The notes below the pieces were generated by a model. It was not told where the DNA came from, ran no database searches, and saw nothing but the letters and a program-made list of their open reading frames with translations. A program made the position numbers and the translations under genes. Positions 1,948-10,125 of a DNA stretch of 10,125 nucleotides are shown in pieces. Source of the DNA: an uncultured Alphaproteobacteria bacterium (GTDB lineage: Bacteria; Pseudomonadota; Alphaproteobacteria; Micropepsales; Micropepsaceae); NCBI GenBank assembly GCA_903922545.1, contig CAIXUE010000096.1, positions 1 to 10,125 of the forward strand, given 5' to 3'. Positions within the stretch are counted from its first letter, which is position 1; the number at the start of each line of letters is the position of its first letter.

Positions 1948-2398
1948 TCAGCCGTAAGCAAAGTCCGGCTTACTCTGCCCGACTTCGATAATATAGCCGT
2001 CGGGATCGCGGATGTAGCAGCGTGTCTCGCCATATTTGTCCATCGGTTCGGTGATGAATTCGGCGCCGCGGCTTTTCCACAATTCATAACAGGCCTGAAT
2101 ATCGGCAACGCGGATATTCATAAAGCTGTCGATCCTATCGGGATCTGCAAGAGTGCTGAGCGTCACTGTGGGTTTGTCCGGCGTGGGTCCGCCGCCGACA
2201 TTGACGATGAGCCAGGTGTTGGCGATCTGGATGTAGCCGGGGGCACCGCTGATGTCCCCCCGGGCTCAGAATGCGCCCGCCAAAGACCTTCTCGTAAAAT
2301 TGCGCCGACCGTTCGATATCGGCGACGGTGATGAAATGCGCGACGGAGAAGCCTTCGCGCGGCGGCATTTCATAATTTTTCTGTTCGACCTGTACCAT
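1948..2398 (-). pseudogene. VOC-family (glyoxalase/dioxygenase fold) protein, apparent one-base frameshift
   Basis: Read from the ATG at 2398, the first half (MVQVEQKNYEMPP..., with VAHFITVADIERSAQFYEKVFGG) is a standard VOC beta-alpha-beta opening. The frame then breaks. The second half continues in another frame from about 2250: an ANTWLIVNVGGG strand, FMNIRVADIQACYELW, and the closing RCYIRDPDGYIIEVGQ with the family's metal-ligand Glu. Removing one base from the six-C run at 2256-2261 (plus strand) joins them into one 149-residue protein, the normal length for one VOC protein. GGAGG lies 5-6 bases before the start. The gene follows the cupin stop by 11 bases, so they form an operon. VOC proteins include metal-dependent lyases, isomerases, dioxygenases and resistance proteins; the substrate cannot be told. 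Whether the frameshift is real or a sequencing error in a homopolymer cannot be decided here. Confidence 0.82.
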
Positions 2399-2409
2399 GG
2401 AGCCTCCGG

Positions 2410-2904: not shown

Positions 2905-2936
2905 GCCTGGATTCCCGCTTTCGCGGGAATGACAAA
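2905..2936. repeat. dispersed REP-like palindrome (ATTCCCGC-TTTC-GCGGGAAT)
   Basis: The core is a perfect 8-bp inverted repeat, ATTCCCGC at 2911-2918 and GCGGGAAT at 2923-2930, with a TTTC loop, flanked by CCTGG on the left and GACAAA on the right. The two strands read through as VIPAKAGIQ and SFPRKRESR, peptides seen in many false ORFs of proteobacterial genomes because this repeat is so widely dispersed. It lies 7 bases past the stop of the ABC permease and before the cupin promoter region. It could stabilise the permease mRNA 3' end or act as a weak terminator; there is no T run. Only one copy is visible in this window. Confidence 0.8.
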
Positions 2937-5400: not shown

Positions 5401-5671
5401 CAGGCCCCTCCCCGTGACGCTCGGCGCGCCGGACGGCAAATGGTAGCGCTGATTCAGGCTGGGGAGAAATGAAGCTGGGCCAGGCGTTTAAGCGAAGTTT
5501 GACGGCGAGAAATTTCAAAAAGTGTCCGGAAATGGACACCGGCATCTTGCAAATTCGTTTTGAAAAGCGCTCCGATTGCTACAGCTTGCGCTATACTTCG
5601 ATAGGAAGCGTCGCGATTAAGTTGTGCCCCGCTTTGCAGATTAAAACGCCCCCCACTTTAAAGAGGCTGCG
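5401..5671. promoter_or_regulatory. divergent intergenic region between the permease and the ATPase fragment
   Basis: This 271-base gap separates the minus-strand permease from the plus-strand low-GC genes and must hold the promoters of both. GC falls from left to right, marking the edge of the acquired stretch at about 5460-5510. It contains the dyad at 5522-5539 listed separately and a TATACT box at 5592-5597 that could be a -10 element for the plus strand, although no good -35 is spaced 16-18 bases before it. AGAGG at 5662-5665 is a fair ribosome binding site for the ATG at 5672. I see no RNA gene in it. Confidence 0.4.
5522..5539. promoter_or_regulatory. dyad GTGTCC-N6-GGACAC, candidate operator or activator site
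   Basis: GTGTCC at 5522-5527 and GGACAC at 5534-5539 form a perfect 6-bp inverted repeat around GGAAAT. The 12-base centre-to-centre distance puts the arms a little more than one helical turn apart, suiting a dimeric regulator. It lies about 120 bases before the permease start (minus) and about 130 before the Walker-A gene (plus). I looked for a sigma-54 GG-N10-GC promoter nearby and did not find one. Confidence 0.4.
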
Positions 5672-6121
5672 ATGATTTTAAAAAAAGCAACCATTGCAAA
5701 CTATCTCTCCATCACTGGATCGATTGAATTCGACTTAGATAATCGCGCAACGATCCTTCTAGGCGCCAACGATCACGGCAAATCAAATATATTGAAAGCA
5801 CTGTGCTGCCTAGCGGCGGCTGCAGAAGGAATCGATCTTCCAGTCGACCTTCGAGGCCAAATTGCAGCAAAGTGGGAAGAATCTAAGGATGTTGAAGGAA
5901 TAACTCGCGGAAAATGGTTTAAAGATACAGCCAAGAGCTTTCTCGATGGAGAGGAAGCGTCAAAGGTTGCTTTGGCCAGAACCTATGCGTTTCGATGCAG
6001 GGAAAAAAATGGCACTCCGATTGAAGGAATAGATCGAGAAGTCGCATTGGCGCTCTGCAATAGCATTGCAAAGGAATTGGCGCTGCCCAGTATCAAAGCC
6101 AAAGAGATTATCGAGGCTTAG
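5672..6121 (+). CDS. short Walker-A protein, likely truncated RecF/OLD-like AAA ATPase
   Basis: A 149-residue protein. Residues 1-50 match the amino end of the RecF/SMC/OLD-type ATPases: an opening strand ILKKATIANYLSI, an acidic strand IEFDLDNRATILLG, and a Walker A motif GANDHGKS at about residues 31-38, followed by the helix NILKAL. Complete relatives are several hundred residues long and have a signature motif, a Walker B Asp/Glu pair and a D-loop, often with a Toprim nuclease domain. None is present here, so it cannot be a normal ATPase. The remaining 100 residues are helical, charged and unrecognised. They may be native insert sequence or a fusion made by a deletion. AGAGG lies 6 bases before the ATG. 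Base composition is much more A+T-rich than the flanks, as is the next gene's, and together they look horizontally acquired. Defence-type ATPases share this amino end, but a defence role is only a guess. Confidence 0.6.
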   Translation: MILKKATIANYLSITGSIEFDLDNRATILLGANDHGKSNILKALCCLAAAAEGIDLPVDLRGQIAAKWEESKDVEGITRGKWFKDTAKSFLDGEEASKVALARTYAFRCREKNGTPIEGIDREVALALCNSIAKELALPSIKAKEIIEA

Positions 6122-6175
6122 CGGCGGCGGGACAAAATCGCTACCGCTCGATCATCGGGAACGGAATAGAACGAG

Positions 6176-6664
6176 ATGACTAAGCAACAAGAGATAGATG
6201 AAAAACACCTCGAGTGGCTAGTGGAGAACCGAAGTAAAAACTCAGGCCACTTCTATGGCACTTTTAAAAACTATTATTGCACAAGAAAAAAATTAGAAAA
6301 AAGTCGTCACTACAGCACTGCTCAAGAACTTCTCGGCGTTGCATTTTCGTTGTGGCCAAGTGTTTTTTTAGCAGACAAGAGCGGAGAGCCCGGAAGCTCT
6401 TTGAAAGACGCGAAAACTTTCCTAGCCACGATGCTGAGGGATAACGCGATAACTTATTCTCAAGACAGAATGAATAATAATTGGAGTTTCAATTTTTATA
6501 TCACGGTCGCTAAGAATCATCTTGAAGCACTGAATAAAAAATTCCCTGGCATTTTCGCGGATGGACTTAAAGTTCGTGAATCGCGCGCGCGATGGGAACA
6601 TTTGCAAGCGGCATTTGAAGCTGGCGTTACACAGTTTGGCGAGGTGCTTACTCAGACCAAGTAA
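6176..6664 (+). CDS. hypothetical protein of the low-GC island
   Basis: I do not recognise this 162-residue protein. It is charged and rich in Lys, Asn, Phe and Tyr, has no signal peptide or membrane segment, and looks largely alpha-helical. Visible landmarks are an aromatic cluster FYGTFKNYYC at about residues 26-35, an FLADK segment near 64, WSFNFYITVAKNHLEAL near 103-119, and a closing helix with ARWEHLQAAFEAG. There is no metal-binding or catalytic signature. It starts at ATG 6176, 54 bases after the Walker-A gene on the same strand, with only a weak purine-rich stretch (GGAAT) before it. A+T content is among the highest in the window, around 6241-6300 especially. It ends 40 bases before the headless crotonase copy. 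The shared strand and composition suggest it arrived with the Walker-A gene, perhaps as a partner. Confidence 0.6.
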   Translation: MTKQQEIDEKHLEWLVENRSKNSGHFYGTFKNYYCTRKKLEKSRHYSTAQELLGVAFSLWPSVFLADKSGEPGSSLKDAKTFLATMLRDNAITYSQDRMNNNWSFNFYITVAKNHLEALNKKFPGIFADGLKVRESRARWEHLQAAFEAGVTQFGEVLTQTK

Positions 6665-6703
6665 ACTCAAAAACCGCTACCCGGCTGTTATTTTTTGGCG
6701 CTG

Positions 6704-6940
6704 TTACCTGCCAATATACACCGGCGCCCGGTTCTGGGCTTCGGCGTCGCGGCCTTCCTGGAAATCGCGGGTGGCGTAGAGCGCGTTGTATTGCTTGCCC
6801 ATGGCGGCGAAAGCGGTGGGCTCGCCGCTGTCGATCGCCAGATGGGCCGAGGCCAGCGTCGCCTTGATGCCAAGCGGGCCGCAGGCGGCGACTTTTTCGG
6901 CGATGCGAATGGCGGCCTGGAGCGTGGCGGCGCTTGCAAA
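6704..6940 (-). pseudogene. headless second copy of the crotonase 3' end
   Basis: On the minus strand an open frame ending at TAA 6704-6706 encodes about 75 residues that match the carboxyl end of the crotonase at 7709-8667, from LQAAIRIAEKVAACGPLG to the ending AQNRAPVYIGR. Over about 205 aligned bases I count some 17-18 differences, roughly 91% identity, and most are synonymous; the protein changes I see are conservative (for example I/V, K/R, T/A, G/A, P/A). Upstream of about 6940 the match stops abruptly and the sequence becomes the 3' end of the HNH gene. There is no usable start codon before the copy, so it is a remnant. The mostly synonymous changes show that both copies were under selection for function before this one lost its 5' part. 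It forms a direct repeat with 7716-7930. Confidence 0.85.
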
Positions 6941-6965
6941 CCAGCTGTGGGACGCTGAAGACCGG

Positions 6966-7712
6966 TTACTTTACCGTCTTCTTTTTGCGGAGCGCATAAG
7001 CGTCCCGCCATTTGGCGCGGTTGCGCGCGATAACCTGGCGATAGTGCCGCTGCCGCTGCATCATATCGCGCACATTGTCCTGTTCTGTTCCCGGCTCCAG
7101 ATGATTGGGGTTCATGCAGAGCCGGTTGTCGCAGGTATGCCGGAGCACAACGCCCTTGGGCAGCGGCCCCTTTAATGTTTTGTAGAAATCCTGGTATGGA
7201 GCCTCAGCAGGGCTGTCATTTTCCGCATCGCTTTTTTGCGCGCGTTGCAGGTGTTTCAAGGGGCGCCACTCCCAACATTCATCCGGCGCATAACGGACGC
7301 CATGAAAACGCGCCTGCATCTTGGGCGGCAAATCTTCCCAGCGGACCAGTTCGCCGGCGGACCGCTGCATGGCATGGACGCGTTTGCGAACCGCTGCCTG
7401 GTGCGCGCGGCGGGCAATTTTGGCCTGGACCCACAGATTGTCGATTTCGTCTTCGGTCGCCGCTGCGATGAAAAGCGTATTGGGTTCCAGTTTTTCCAAT
7501 CGCGCCTGTTCATGGCTCATCCTGCGGCCCCGCGCGGGAACAACCAGACGCGTCAGTTTCATATCCGCGACAGCGCCGGGCGGATAATCAAACGCCGCGA
7601 CGCTCAATTCCAATGTTTCGCGGATATCGGATGCGCTTGTGCGCAGCGACTGCTGTTTGCCGGCCATGAAGGCGTAAATACGCAAAGATCCGGCGTCCGG
7701 CTGGTTTCTCAC
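6966..7712 (-). CDS. HNH endonuclease (homing-endonuclease-like)
   Basis: A 248-residue protein whose carboxyl half holds an HNH nuclease motif: CWEW at 146-149, then VVLRHTCDNRLCMNPNHLE at 188-206, where H192 is the first His, C194/C199 are likely structural zinc ligands, and N203/H204 complete the motif. GTEQDNVRDM follows, as in the free-standing HNH_3-like nucleases of phages and introns. The first 140 residues are basic and helical with no domain I recognise, perhaps for DNA binding. The tail is very basic (LRKKKTVK). The longest start is GTG at 7712, overlapping the crotonase TGA by 4 bases (GTGA), which suggests translational coupling; ATG at 7667 is an alternative, and neither has a strong ribosome binding site. 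The gene sits between the crotonase and a second copy of the crotonase 3' end, a position that suits mobility by cut-and-repair at that site. Confidence 0.8.
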   Translation of the reverse strand: MRNQPDAGSLRIYAFMAGKQQSLRTSASDIRETLELSVAAFDYPPGAVADMKLTRLVVPARGRRMSHEQARLEKLEPNTLFIAAATEDEIDNLWVQAKIARRAHQAAVRKRVHAMQRSAGELVRWEDLPPKMQARFHGVRYAPDECWEWRPLKHLQRAQKSDAENDSPAEAPYQDFYKTLKGPLPKGVVLRHTCDNRLCMNPNHLEPGTEQDNVRDMMQRQRHYRQVIARNRAKWRDAYALRKKKTVK

Positions 7713-8667
7713 TTCCCGATATAAATCGGCGGGCGGTTCTGGGCTTCGGCGTCGCGGCCTTCCTGAAAATCGCGGGTGCCATAAAGCGCGTTATATTGCT
7801 TGCCCATGGCGGCGAAGGCGGTGGGCTCGCCGCTGTCGATCGCCAGATGCGCCGAGGCCAGCGTGGCCTTGATGCCCAAGGGCCCGCAGGCGGCGACTTT
7901 TTCGGCGATGCGGATGGCGGTCTGGAGAGCGGCGTCTTTGTTGGGGGCGATCTCCTGCACCTCGCCCATACGCAGCGCCTCCTCAGCGCCCCAATGATCG
8001 CCGGTCAGCATGTAGCGCATGGCGTTGCCCCAGCCCACTTCGCGCGGGAAGCGGACGGTGGCGCCGCCGCCGGGAAAACGGCCATGGGTGTTTTCATCCT
8101 GGCCGAAGCGCACATCGGCGGAACAGATGCGGATATCGGCCGCCAGATGCAGTTCATGGGCGGCGTTCCAGGTGTCGCCATGGGTGACCACGATCATGGG
8201 CTTGGTCATGCGTTTGGCGGAATTGGTGCCGGTATAGCTGACCAGATCTTCGGGCGGGGGTGTGGGCGCGCCCTGTGCCATGGTGGCCTTGTGGGCATCG
8301 ACATCAATGCCGCGGGAGAAATTGTCGCATGGCCGAACAGGATGGCGCAGCGCAGGGAATCGTCATGCTCATAACCGGTGAAAGCGAGCGCCAGGGCATG
8401 GGTGGTGTCGGGATCGAAGCGGTTAAAGACTTCCGGACGGTTGATGCCGATCAAGACGATAGGGCCGCGCCGTTCGACCGTGGCGCGGACATTGGGCGAA
8501 AGCGGCACATCGGCCAGCCTGGTGGCCGGGGCGGGTTGGGCGGCGGCTTGCGTGGCCGCACTGGTAGCCGCGCTGGCCACACCGGCCATGACCATGGCGC
8601 CTTTGAGAAGAGTGCGGCGCTCAAGAGAAAAGTCTTCCGAAGAATTATCCGGCTTGTTGATCGTCAC
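7709..8667 (-). pseudogene. Tat-signal crotonase (enoyl-CoA hydratase/isomerase family), apparent one-base frameshift
   Basis: The start is GTG 8667, with AAGGA (8675-8679 complement) 7 bases before it. The frame runs through a Tat-like signal, ERRTLLK at residues 16-22 and an Ala-rich stretch to about 44, then the crotonase opening VERRGPIVLIGINRPEVFNR, and is lost at about 8328 after CAILFG. The rest continues in another frame, starting DNFSRGIDVDAHKATM, the first oxyanion-hole segment. Adding one G at the CATGCGAC junction gives a single 319-residue protein. Both catalytic glutamates of true hydratases are in place: E172 in AHELHLAADI and E192 in FGQDEN, 20 apart as in E144/E164 of rat mitochondrial hydratase. 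A Tat signal on a CoA-dependent fold is odd, since acyl-CoA is cytoplasmic. It is divergent from the cupin at 8812 and is followed by the HNH gene. The frameshift may be a sequencing error; if it is real, the gene is dead or recently broken. Confidence 0.85.
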
Positions 8668-8720
8668 GGGCGCGTCCTTCCGGTTTCTGGTGCTGGCGGC
8701 TTTGTGCCAGCCCACCTATG

Positions 8721-8748
8721 TTGCCTCATATGTTAAGTGGGGTTATCT
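8721..8748 (+). promoter_or_regulatory. candidate sigma-70 promoter for the cupin gene
   Basis: TTGCCT at 8721-8726 and TTATCT at 8743-8748 are spaced 16 bases apart and each matches the -35 or -10 consensus at 4 of 6 positions. Transcription would start near 8755, about 57 bases before the cupin ATG and inside the inverted repeat at 8751-8774, which is where a repressor would be expected to bind. Confidence 0.35.
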
Positions 8749-8750
8749 GA

Positions 8751-8774
8751 AATTGCTTGCCTAAGCAAGCAATT
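8751..8774. promoter_or_regulatory. perfect 10-bp inverted repeat, candidate operator of the divergent crotonase/cupin pair
   Basis: AATTGCTTGC (8751-8760), CTAA (8761-8764) and GCAAGCAATT (8765-8774) form a perfect palindrome with a 4-base centre. It lies in the 144-base gap between the crotonase start (8667, minus) and the cupin start (8812, plus), directly after a possible -10 box. Neither side has a T run, so a terminator is unlikely. The size and symmetry suit a TetR- or MarR-like dimer that could control both genes; no regulator gene lies in the window. Confidence 0.5.
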
Positions 8775-8811
8775 CTGCCCTGCAGGAATTGCGCATCTCA
8801 AGGAGACTGTC

Positions 8812-9330
8812 ATGAAAAACCGCTTTGCCGCCCTTTTGTGCGCCGCCGCGCTGTGCCTTCCCGCCGCCGCGCAGGCGCAGATGAAAACTGCCCCTCACCC
8901 CATCACCGGCGCGCCGGCCATTACCGACGCGCCCGGGCGGGGCGAGATCGACACGGTGCATACCGCGGCGATGCCGTCGATGTTCGATCTGGACGCCCAG
9001 CCGAAGGAGCAGATTTCGCCGTTGATCCAGCGGCAATATCTTTCGGGCAGCCAATCCACCCTGACCAAATGGACGGTGAAGGCGGGCGGGGTTTTTCCGC
9101 TGCATCATCACGCCAATGAGCAGATGACCTGGCTGACCAAGGGACGCTGCGAGATGTATTCGCAAGGCAGGAAATTCGTGCTGACGCCCGGCAGCGTGGT
9201 GATTGTGCCGCCCAATGTGCCGCATGAGCTGACCTGCAGCGAGGACAGCATTGATATCGATTTCTTCGCGCCGCAAAGACAAGATTGGATGGATGGTGTT
9301 CCGTCGGTGGCGGCGCAGCCCTCCAAGTAG
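8812..9330 (+). CDS. secreted cupin protein
   Basis: A 172-residue exported cupin. AAGGAG at 8800-8805 lies 6 bases before the ATG at 8812, which also starts a clean Sec signal peptide (hydrophobic to AQA, cleavage after about residue 22); the longer frame from 8737 has no such support. The barrel has the full metal-binding set: H98, H99 and H100 in PLHHHANEQ with E103, and H138 in PPNVPHEL after GSVVIVPPN. It is therefore probably a metal-dependent enzyme or sensor in the periplasm; the substrate is unknown. The last 17 residues, RQDWMDGVPSVAAQPSK, lie beyond the barrel and are encoded a second time at 9417-9470. It is transcribed away from the crotonase across a shared region with a strong palindrome, which suggests joint control and a shared pathway. 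Confidence 0.88.
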   Translation: MKNRFAALLCAAALCLPAAAQAQMKTAPHPITGAPAITDAPGRGEIDTVHTAAMPSMFDLDAQPKEQISPLIQRQYLSGSQSTLTKWTVKAGGVFPLHHHANEQMTWLTKGRCEMYSQGRKFVLTPGSVVIVPPNVPHELTCSEDSIDIDFFAPQRQDWMDGVPSVAAQPSK

Positions 9331-9377
9331 ATCAGTCTGAGTCATCTATTTCGCTGATCAGCGCGCGTTTCACCTGG

Positions 9378-9401
9378 ATGGCCCGCACTCCGGCGGGCCA
9401 T
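9378..9401. terminator. 9-bp hairpin after the cupin gene, possible terminator
   Basis: ATGGCCCGC (9378-9386) and GCGGGCCAT (9393-9401) pair perfectly around ACTCCG. It lies 48 bases after the cupin stop, between the cupin and the convergent gene ending at 9473. The following sequence is A/T-rich (AATAAATATT) but not a T run, so termination would be weak or act mainly to protect the mRNA end. Confidence 0.45.
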
Positions 9402-9416
9402 GACAATAAATATTAG

Positions 9417-9470
9417 CGGCAGGACTGGATGGATGGCGTACCCTCAGTAGCGGCGCAGCCGAGCAAATAA
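9417..9470 (+). pseudogene. headless second copy of the last 17 cupin codons
   Basis: This stretch encodes RQDWMDGVPSVAAQPSK and a stop, exactly the end of the cupin at 9277-9330. The protein is identical, yet about 14 of 54 bases differ, all synonymously, including AGA/CGG, TCC/AGC and the stop TAG/TAA. An in-frame TAG directly precedes it and the upstream bases do not match the cupin, so it cannot be translated as part of a cupin now. It is the tail of a lost paralogue that had diverged under selection. It ends 2 bases before the stop of the convergent gene at 9473. Confidence 0.82.
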
Positions 9471-9472
9471 TT

Positions 9473-10125
9473 CTACTTCACTTCCACCAGCATGGCGTGG
9501 ATGGCGCCATCCTGCGCGGTGATGGTGCGGGATTTGCCGGCGGGCAGGAAAATGGCCTGGCCGCTGTCGTAATGCTGCACCCTGGCCGGGCCGCCATCTT
9601 CGGCGATGGACAGATCGCCGCCTTCGGCAAAAGCGATGAACATGTCGCGGGTGTTAAAGGACGCGGCGCCGGGACGGGCCGACCAGGCGCAATCCCAGAT
9701 AATCACCTTGTCATTGTCCACCACCTTGGTTTGCACGGGCGCGTATTTGTTGGCCGGCAGGCTGGTGGTGTTGGCGGCTTCGGGAACGGATTTTTCCTTG
9801 ATATCGATCACCACCGTGTGGCGGCCCGGATCGGTGACGGTCATTTCCGCATGGGTGAGGTCTTTGGGCAGGTACCACATGTGATCCTTGATCACCGGGC
9901 CGGGCGGGCCCCAATTGGCGTCGCCCTGACGCTTGGTCACAACCGCGGCGGTGTTGAGATCCAGCCCCGCGAAGAAGTAGCGGTGGCGGTGCATCGCAGC
10001 TGGGACGTCTTTTGTATAGACGACATTGTAGGCCGCGCCGCGGTCATTTTCGACCAGAAGGGTGGCGCCGGGGCGCGGCCAGCCGGGTGGCAAATCGTCA
10101 GTCGCGGGCTGGGCCTGGGCAATCG
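9473..10125 (-). CDS. bicupin-like secreted protein, amino end beyond the window
   Basis: The frame is open to the right edge, so the gene is partial; about 217 residues are visible. The first visible residues, IAQAQPATDDLPPGWP, look like the end of a signal peptide and its cleavage site, so only about 20-25 residues may be missing. Two cupin-like halves can be seen: one around VPAAMHRHRYFFAGLDL, with two histidines, and one near the carboxyl end, with VQHYDSGQAIFLPAGKSRTI followed by a closing strand AIHAMLVEVK. The second half lacks a full HxH...E...H set, so metal binding there is doubtful. It is convergent with the cupin at 8812, ending 2 bases past the cupin-tail remnant. A third secreted cupin in one 10-kb window suggests a shared periplasmic task, but the reaction is unknown. 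Confidence 0.72.
   Translation of the reverse strand, partial: IAQAQPATDDLPPGWPRPGATLLVENDRGAAYNVVYTKDVPAAMHRHRYFFAGLDLNTAAVVTKRQGDANWGPPGPVIKDHMWYLPKDLTHAEMTVTDPGRHTVVIDIKEKSVPEAANTTSLPANKYAPVQTKVVDNDKVIIWDCAWSARPGAASFNTRDMFIAFAEGGDLSIAEDGGPARVQHYDSGQAIFLPAGKSRTITAQDGAIHAMLVEVK

What the first reader, a model, noticed from the sequence alone, without database searches (positions are those of the whole stretch)
6704..9470. Nested locus: a crotonase/cupin pair and an HNH gene lie between the outer 3' ends of an older crotonase/cupin pair
Seen: the divergent crotonase (minus) and cupin (plus) are flanked, each on its outer side, by a headless second copy of its own 3' end (6704-6940 and 9417-9470). 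Both outer tails are in the orientation expected of one resident divergent pair whose middle is gone, and an HNH gene sits inside the left tail. Inference: a related cassette (HNH, crotonase, cupin) replaced the interior of a homologous resident locus, leaving only its 3' ends. An HNH nuclease that cuts the resident allele could drive this, a form of homing that carries metabolic genes along. Two independent partial duplications would be a simpler but less symmetrical explanation.
Basis: partly seen in the sequence, partly recalled or inferred. Interest (0 to 1): 0.75.

Follow-up and report, generated by a model that had tools for sequence, protein, structure and literature searches.

The report
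Gene pair nested inside its remnants
In a bacterial DNA fragment, a two-gene block beside a DNA-cutting enzyme gene sits between leftover tails of a different version of the same two genes, a scar of gene replacement that resembles how selfish DNA-cutting genes spread in fungal mitochondria.

Summary
A 73-codon crotonase 3' end (6704-6922; 90% nt identity) and an 18-codon cupin 3' end (9417-9470; 78%) lie outside the inner genes, same orientation. Differences are mostly synonymous (crotonase 15 codons synonymous, 5 not; cupin 12 and 0), matched by 0 of 20,000 neutral simulations: the tails come from a diverged functional copy, not from local duplication and decay. Inner and outer crotonase tails are sisters (100/95), so donor and resident are close kin or paralogues. 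Against one simple cassette swap: synonymous divergence differs between tails (14/66 versus 11/15 codons, p=2e-4), and no relative of the whole locus could be fetched. The HNH gene is phage-type and free-standing; its one full-length genomic relative lies in a gene-transfer-agent-like cluster without such a duplication. The left half (inner 3' end, nuclease gene, displaced 3' end 1 kb on) matches fungal mitochondrial mobile ORFs (PMC3630166, passages). Best reading: a recombination scar made by illegitimate joining of an incoming homologous segment. A role for the nuclease is inferred, not shown.

The parts
6704..6929 (-). Outer crotonase 3' tail: last 72 codons plus stop of a second crotonase copy, no 5' part
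   Evidence: 90% nt identity to 7711-7934; 15 synonymous and 5 non-synonymous codon differences of 73; sister to the inner tail at 100/95
6930..6965 (.). Left junction: 36 bp between the HNH stop and the broken end of the outer crotonase tail; no significant terminal inverted repeat with the other end of the HNH gene
   Evidence: local alignment p 0.12 against random pairs from the window
6966..7712 (-). Free-standing HNH_3 endonuclease gene (248 aa from GTG; 239 aa in database record P0001, start near 7685)
   Evidence: PF13392 E 2.2e-7; phage HNH or endonuclease families, best phrog_1872 E 1.6e-16; 5 other relatives with 74-96% query coverage, 42-54% identity
7709..8715 (-). Inner crotonase (enoyl-CoA hydratase family); broken by a frameshift near 8330 into ORFs 8206-8715 and 7709-8281
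   Evidence: PF00378 E 2.3e-23 on the C-terminal ORF; alignment of that ORF with intact relatives
8812..9330 (+). Inner cupin (Cupin_2), 172 aa
   Evidence: PF07883 E 6.1e-12; 278 proteins at E 1e-3 (120 listed)
9331..9416 (.). Right spacer, 86 bp, holding a palindrome with a 9-bp stem (9373-9404) of the same head-and-tail form as one at 2906-2933; REP-like (name recalled)
   Evidence: pattern scan; predicted stem (fold energy of the spacer not unusual, z -1.17)
9417..9470 (+). Outer cupin 3' tail: last 17 codons plus stop of a second cupin copy
   Evidence: 78% nt identity to 9280-9329; 12 of 18 codons differ, all synonymously; stop lies 2 bp from the stop of the convergent ORF 9473-10123
5460..6700 (+). 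A+T-rich island (GC 0.43-0.51 in 300-base windows) abutting the outer crotonase tail: truncated AAA_15/OLD-like ATPase ORF 5672-6121 and an ORF without family match, 6176-6664; may or may not belong to the same history

Best explanation
The locus is a recombination scar between two diverged, once functional copies of the same crotonase and cupin genes. A segment from a close relative (or a paralogous locus) carrying the crotonase 3' end, the free-standing HNH gene and probably the whole crotonase-cupin pair was joined into the resident locus with homology on at most one side of each junction (illegitimate break repair), so the resident 3' ends were pushed outward instead of exchanged. On the left this is the layout of a mobile endonuclease gene that brings a replacement 3' end for the gene it lands in and displaces the native 3' end. 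Shown: two diverged copies, a purifying-selection signature, the boundaries, and common lineage of the crotonase tails. Inferred: the direction of transfer, the number of events (the unequal divergence leans towards two), and any role of HNH cutting. The first two rivals below are narrower versions of this statement, so their odds overlap with it.
For: Codon comparison and neutral simulation: crotonase tail dS 0.34, dN 0.04; cupin tail 12 of 18 codons changed, none in amino acid; 0 of 20,000 simulations as low in amino-acid changes for either tail at kappa 1, 2 and 4. The outer cupin tail keeps the C terminus AAQPSK of the inner one, which none of the 39 other cupin C termini printed has. Inner and outer crotonase tails are sisters at 100/95 in a tree of 111 rows. 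HNH_3 domain and phage HNH families. The layout matches fungal mORFs, where the duplicated C-terminal part of atp6 lies about 1000 bp downstream past an endonuclease ORF (PMC3630166, passages); here the spacing is 1005 bp. One-sided illegitimate break repair in homing is described for phage T4 introns (PMC2988022, passages). No Rfam family, so no known group I intron, at gathering score in the window.
Against: Synonymous divergence differs between the tails (p=2.2e-4), which no single swap of one haplotype for another predicts. No relative of the locus with or without the HNH could be compared. None of 33 other HNH loci, including the one full-length relative, has a flanking gene-tail duplication. 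A protein-level scan shows no clear lineage switch at the tail boundary of the inner crotonase. The inner crotonase carries a frameshift, and by eye a glyoxalase-like gene near 2260 does too, so contig errors or decay cannot be excluded.
Confidence: 0.5

Rival explanations
1. One event: a single HNH-crotonase-cupin cassette replaced the interior of one resident divergent pair, both ends joined illegitimately (double illegitimate recombination or end joining into a gap). A narrower version of the best explanation.
For: The nested order does not follow from a tandem duplication of the pair plus deletions (inference); both remnants are 3' ends with a functional-divergence signature. It needs the fewest events.
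Against: Unequal synonymous divergence of the two tails (14/66 versus 11/15), unless the 224-nt left copies were later made alike by gene conversion. No relative shows the pair as an ancestral unit: 0 of 7 crotonase-bearing genomes have a cupin relative at E 1e-20 (the tool warns that an empty answer without a positive control shows nothing).
Confidence: 0.27
2. Two separate one-sided events: on the left an HNH element that carried a replacement crotonase 3' end (mORF-like), on the right an independent exchange at the REP-like palindrome beside the cupin 3' end. A narrower version of the best explanation.
For: Divergence heterogeneity; left layout like mORFs; REP-like palindrome ending 12 bp before the right tail.
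Against: Two independent events at the two ends of one gene pair are less economical; no nuclease or mobile gene on the right side.
Confidence: 0.3
3. Paralogues of the same genome: the lineage had two crotonase and two cupin copies, and local rearrangement and deletion left the tails; the HNH is a bystander.
For: Inner and outer crotonase tails are sisters apart from the other listed proteins; crotonase-tail codon usage is like that of neighbouring genes for both copies.
Against: A tandem pair plus deletions gives the order crotonase, cupin, crotonase, cupin, not the nested order (inference). Seven genomes with a crotonase relative show one close copy each (2 genomes at E 1e-50; 5 at E 1e-40), but they are not close kin of the window.
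Confidence: 0.17
4. Local partial duplications of the two 3' ends that decayed as pseudogenes.
For: Only 3' ends are present and they are headless.
Against: Differences are synonymous far beyond neutral expectation in both tails (0 of 20,000 simulations).
Confidence: 0.03
5. Assembly chimaera of strains in a metagenome-type contig.
For: The window equals a 10,125-base contig with two apparent frameshifts; no genome is held.
Against: The duplicated stretches differ by 10-22%.
Confidence: 0.1

Closest known systems
Mobile ORFs (mORFs) of fungal mitochondrial genomes (Allomyces atp6; Glomus atp6, atp9, cox2, nad3)
   Same: Gene 5' part continuous with an inserted 3' end, then an endonuclease ORF, then the displaced native 3' end; spacing about 1 kb in atp6; nucleotide divergence well above amino-acid divergence between the two 3' ends (PMC3630166, passages)
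   Different: Those have LAGLIDADG or GIY-YIG nucleases, organelle genomes and close relatives without the insert; here HNH_3, a bacterial contig, a second displaced tail on the partner gene, and no empty site seen
Free-standing HNH homing endonucleases of phages (intronless homing, marker exclusion)
   Same: HNH_3 domain of phage type, no known intron, gene beside another gene; co-conversion of flanking alleles is known in T4 (PMC2988022, passages)
   Different: Sits beside metabolic genes; homing proper replaces flanks and does not leave displaced tails; activity and target unknown
One-sided or illegitimate break repair (T4 intron homing with one exon; homology-facilitated illegitimate recombination)
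   Same: Homology on one side and an illegitimate joint on the other can leave displaced ends (PMC3240628 and PMC2988022, passages)
   Different: No microhomology could be tested because neither parent sequence is known
HEG islands: nuclease genes at boundaries of exchanged phage segments (PMC10448857, abstract and section list seen)
   Same: A nuclease gene lies at the boundary between diverged allele blocks
   Different: Those are phage genomes and regions over 10 kb of high identity

Membership tests
Free-standing HNH homing endonuclease | HNH nuclease domain | tested here: met
   PF13392 E 2.2e-7, 30.8 bits against a cut-off of 24.8; 8 phage HNH or endonuclease families at E 0.01
Free-standing HNH homing endonuclease | Own ORF, not inside a group I intron | tested here: met
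   Open frame 6966-7712 between gene ends; 0 Rfam matches in the window at gathering score. Inteins were not searched for separately
Free-standing HNH homing endonuclease | Presence/absence at the same site in relatives | tested here: inconclusive
   No close relative of the locus in the genomes searched
Free-standing HNH homing endonuclease | Cuts the allele that lacks it | not testable with these tools
   Needs biochemistry
mORF-type element with replacement 3' end | Two 3' ends of the host gene flanking an endonuclease ORF | tested here: met
mORF-type element with replacement 3' end | The two 3' ends diverged as functional sequence, one of foreign origin | tested here: inconclusive
   Functional divergence met; foreign origin of either end not shown, since both are sisters
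mORF-type element with replacement 3' end | Host gene is a functional hybrid | tested here: inconclusive
   No clear lineage switch; the gene is frameshifted in this contig
mORF-type element with replacement 3' end | Recurrence of the layout with related nucleases | tested here: not met
   0 of 33 other HNH loci with a hit to the model (one 22-nt match apart; 20 more of the 53 had no hit and were not tested; some loci are near-duplicates of each other and some flanks short), one of them the full-length relative in G066
Homology-facilitated illegitimate recombination | Homologous joint at one end, illegitimate joint at the other | not testable with these tools
   Donor and resident parent sequences are not held

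The most novel reading that the evidence does not exclude
A natural bacterial homing cassette: a free-standing HNH nuclease that carries a synonymously diverged (uncuttable) 3' end of its target gene, and with it a linked metabolic gene pair, replaces resident alleles and leaves the native 3' ends as displaced tails. It would be a bacterial counterpart of fungal mORFs, built like a recoded-rescue gene drive.
Probability: 0.13. Interest if true: 0.75.

Novelty: new variant of a known kind. Interest (0 to 1): 0.42.

Why it matters
If the nuclease drove the exchange, selfish nucleases could move ordinary metabolic alleles between bacterial chromosomes and leave readable scars (displaced, synonymously diverged 3' ends), a signature that can be searched for in any genome. 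If it did not, the locus is still a clear example of joining of diverged homologues that keeps both versions of two gene ends in place.

Tried and rejected
Rejected or led nowhere. (1) Terminal inverted repeats around the HNH gene (a shared 8-mer): p 0.12 against random pairs, dropped. (2) Finding the crotonase-cupin pair elsewhere through equal contig lengths in the protein listings: 3 coincidences (one the window itself) against a mean of 1.55 and a maximum of 5 at shifted lengths, no evidence. (3) Close genomes: crotonase at 75% and 68% in L002 and L001 are the nearest full matches of 25 loci. In the order of L002's genome 2 of 96 genomes match at E 1e-50 and in its class 2 of the 385 drawn at E 1e-75, both times the genomes of L001 and L002 themselves. 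The permease at 2938-5439 matches in 17 of 96 at E 1e-100, best 51% identity, so I take it that the window's lineage is not among those held in that order; the class was only sampled. (4) HNH profile: 1 of 385 class genomes at E 1e-8, over the HNH part only, and 0 of 5 genomes at E 1e-5; viral contigs match over the C-terminal HNH part only. The one full-length genomic relative came from the HNH_3 family search (3 of 96 genomes; 14 of 199 in another order). (5) HNH structure: model mean pLDDT 68.5, pTM 0.43; no PDB fold match under E 0.001, the homing endonuclease I-PpoI among the weak rows (E 0.98); no PDB sequence match at E 1. (6) Codon usage does not settle which copy is foreign: mean log relative codon frequency -0.77 inner and -0.83 outer for the crotonase tails, like neighbouring genes; the 18-codon cupin tails score lower, -1.25 inner and -1.54 outer, the outer as low as the island ORFs, but are too short to weigh. 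(7) Literature searches that could have shown a bacterial case of a nuclease gene with a displaced native 3' end (open-licence papers; only titles and abstract starts of the 10-12 rows listed each time) showed none that I recognised; this is not proof of absence. One search was for illegitimate recombination. (8) No tRNA gene in the window.
Full report
What is there. The window has the length of a 10,125-base contig in the protein database; no whole genome is held for it. From left to right the locus reads: an A+T-rich island (about 5460-6700), the outer crotonase 3' tail (6704-6929, minus), a 36-bp junction, an HNH gene (6966-7712, minus), the inner crotonase (7709-8715, minus, frameshifted near 8330), the divergent inner cupin (8812-9330, plus), an 86-bp spacer with a REP-like palindrome, and the outer cupin 3' tail (9417-9470, plus), whose stop lies 2 bp from the stop of a convergent ORF (9473-10123).

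Is it more than chance. The left repeat is 224 nt at 90% (blastn E 5.5e-82). The right repeat has 39 of 50 matches, while the best match to the same 50-mer in 200 first-order Markov surrogates of the window is 32. Both are in frame and end in a stop codon at the homologous place.

Where the tails come from. Over 73 aligned codons the crotonase tails differ at 15 codons synonymously (stop codon counted) and 5 non-synonymously (dS 0.34, dN 0.04). The cupin tails differ at 12 of 18 codons, all synonymously, which is near saturation (pS 0.97). In 20,000 neutral simulations with the same number of changes, at kappa 1, 2 or 4, none had as few amino-acid changes for either tail. The two copies therefore diverged as functional genes before one was cut down. 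The C terminus AAQPSK is in both cupin copies and in none of the other 39 of the 40 cupin C termini printed. The crotonase tails are sisters with 100/95 support in a tree of 111 distinct rows (both tails and the 119 other listed relatives, identical rows dropped; 73 columns, so deeper forks are weak). Donor and resident are thus close kin or paralogues, not distant organisms. Codon usage does not tell which is foreign.

One event or two. A single swap of one haplotype into another predicts like divergence in both tails. Among codons with a synonymous choice and the same amino acid, 14 of 66 differ in the crotonase tail and 11 of 15 in the cupin tail (Fisher p 2.2e-4). I hold both as open, with a slight lean to two exchanges.

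The HNH gene. It matches HNH_3 (PF13392) and phage HNH families. The protein search, which reaches only relatives sharing short exact words, gave 11 proteins at E 1e-3, the window's own included; 5 of these cover 74-96% of the query at 42-54% identity. The only full-length genomic relative found (29% over 234 aligned columns) is in genome G066, about 1.6 kb from a major capsid gene, in a cluster with distal-tail (Rcc01695 family) and cell-wall peptidase genes over their curated cut-offs, a tape-measure gene that matches the RcGTA model below its cut-off, and a T5orf172 ORF 1.6 kb to the other side. Phage-type structural genes are ordinary company for homing-type nucleases. A screen of 54 loci for direct repeats between the two flanks of the HNH ORF placed the ORF in 34. 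The window shows the repeat; the other 33 show none beyond a 22-nt match in L032; 20 had no hit to the model and were not tested, several loci are near-duplicates of each other, and some flanks were short. So the duplication is not a general trait of such genes.

Relatives of the gene pair. Twenty-five genome loci with a crotonase relative (best 75% identity) show no cupin relative at E 1e-5 in their fetched flanks. Seven of those genomes were searched whole for the cupin: 0 at E 1e-20 (no positive control). The same seven have one close crotonase each (E 1e-50, E 1e-40).

Comparison with known things. The left half has the layout of fungal mitochondrial mORFs: in Glomus atp6 the duplicated C-terminal part lies about 1000 bp downstream past an endonuclease ORF, the two ends sharing 63.5% of nucleotides but 91% of amino acids (PMC3630166, passages). 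In phage T4, homing with homology on one side only gives illegitimate break repair, and free-standing endonucleases co-convert flanking alleles (PMC2988022, passages). Homology-facilitated illegitimate recombination is a bacterial process with one homologous and one illegitimate joint (PMC3240628, passages). Nuclease genes at boundaries of exchanged phage segments are described in PMC10448857 (abstract). The right half has no nuclease; its break lies 12 bp from a REP-like palindrome of the same form as one at 2906-2933 (the name REP is recalled).

Verdict. It is unproven as to a single cassette and as to homing. I file the locus as a recombination scar with a free-standing HNH gene at its left boundary, a new variant of a known kind, and keep the bacterial mORF-like homing cassette as the bold reading.

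Noticed in passing
window 1948-2400: By eye, a glyoxalase-like gene appears broken by a frameshift near 2260 (ORFs 2135-2941 and 1948-2166), the second apparent frameshift of the contig; either decay or base errors of the assembly. Not checked against relatives.
   Followed up: no
window 5460-6700: A+T-rich island with a truncated AAA_15/OLD-like ATPase ORF (PADLOC best AriA, E 7.8e-9) and an ORF without family match, ending beside the outer crotonase tail; looks like a remnant of a defence-type insertion.
   Followed up: partly
window 2906-2933 and 9373-9404: Two palindromes of the form CCTGGAT-stem-loop-stem-ATGAC, REP-like; the second separates the two cupin 3' ends.
   Followed up: partly
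L089 7531-17922 (G066): A gene-transfer-agent-like structural cluster that holds both an HNH gene related to the window's and a T5orf172 (GIY-YIG type, recalled) ORF near the major capsid gene: possible homing genes in a gene transfer agent.
   Followed up: partly
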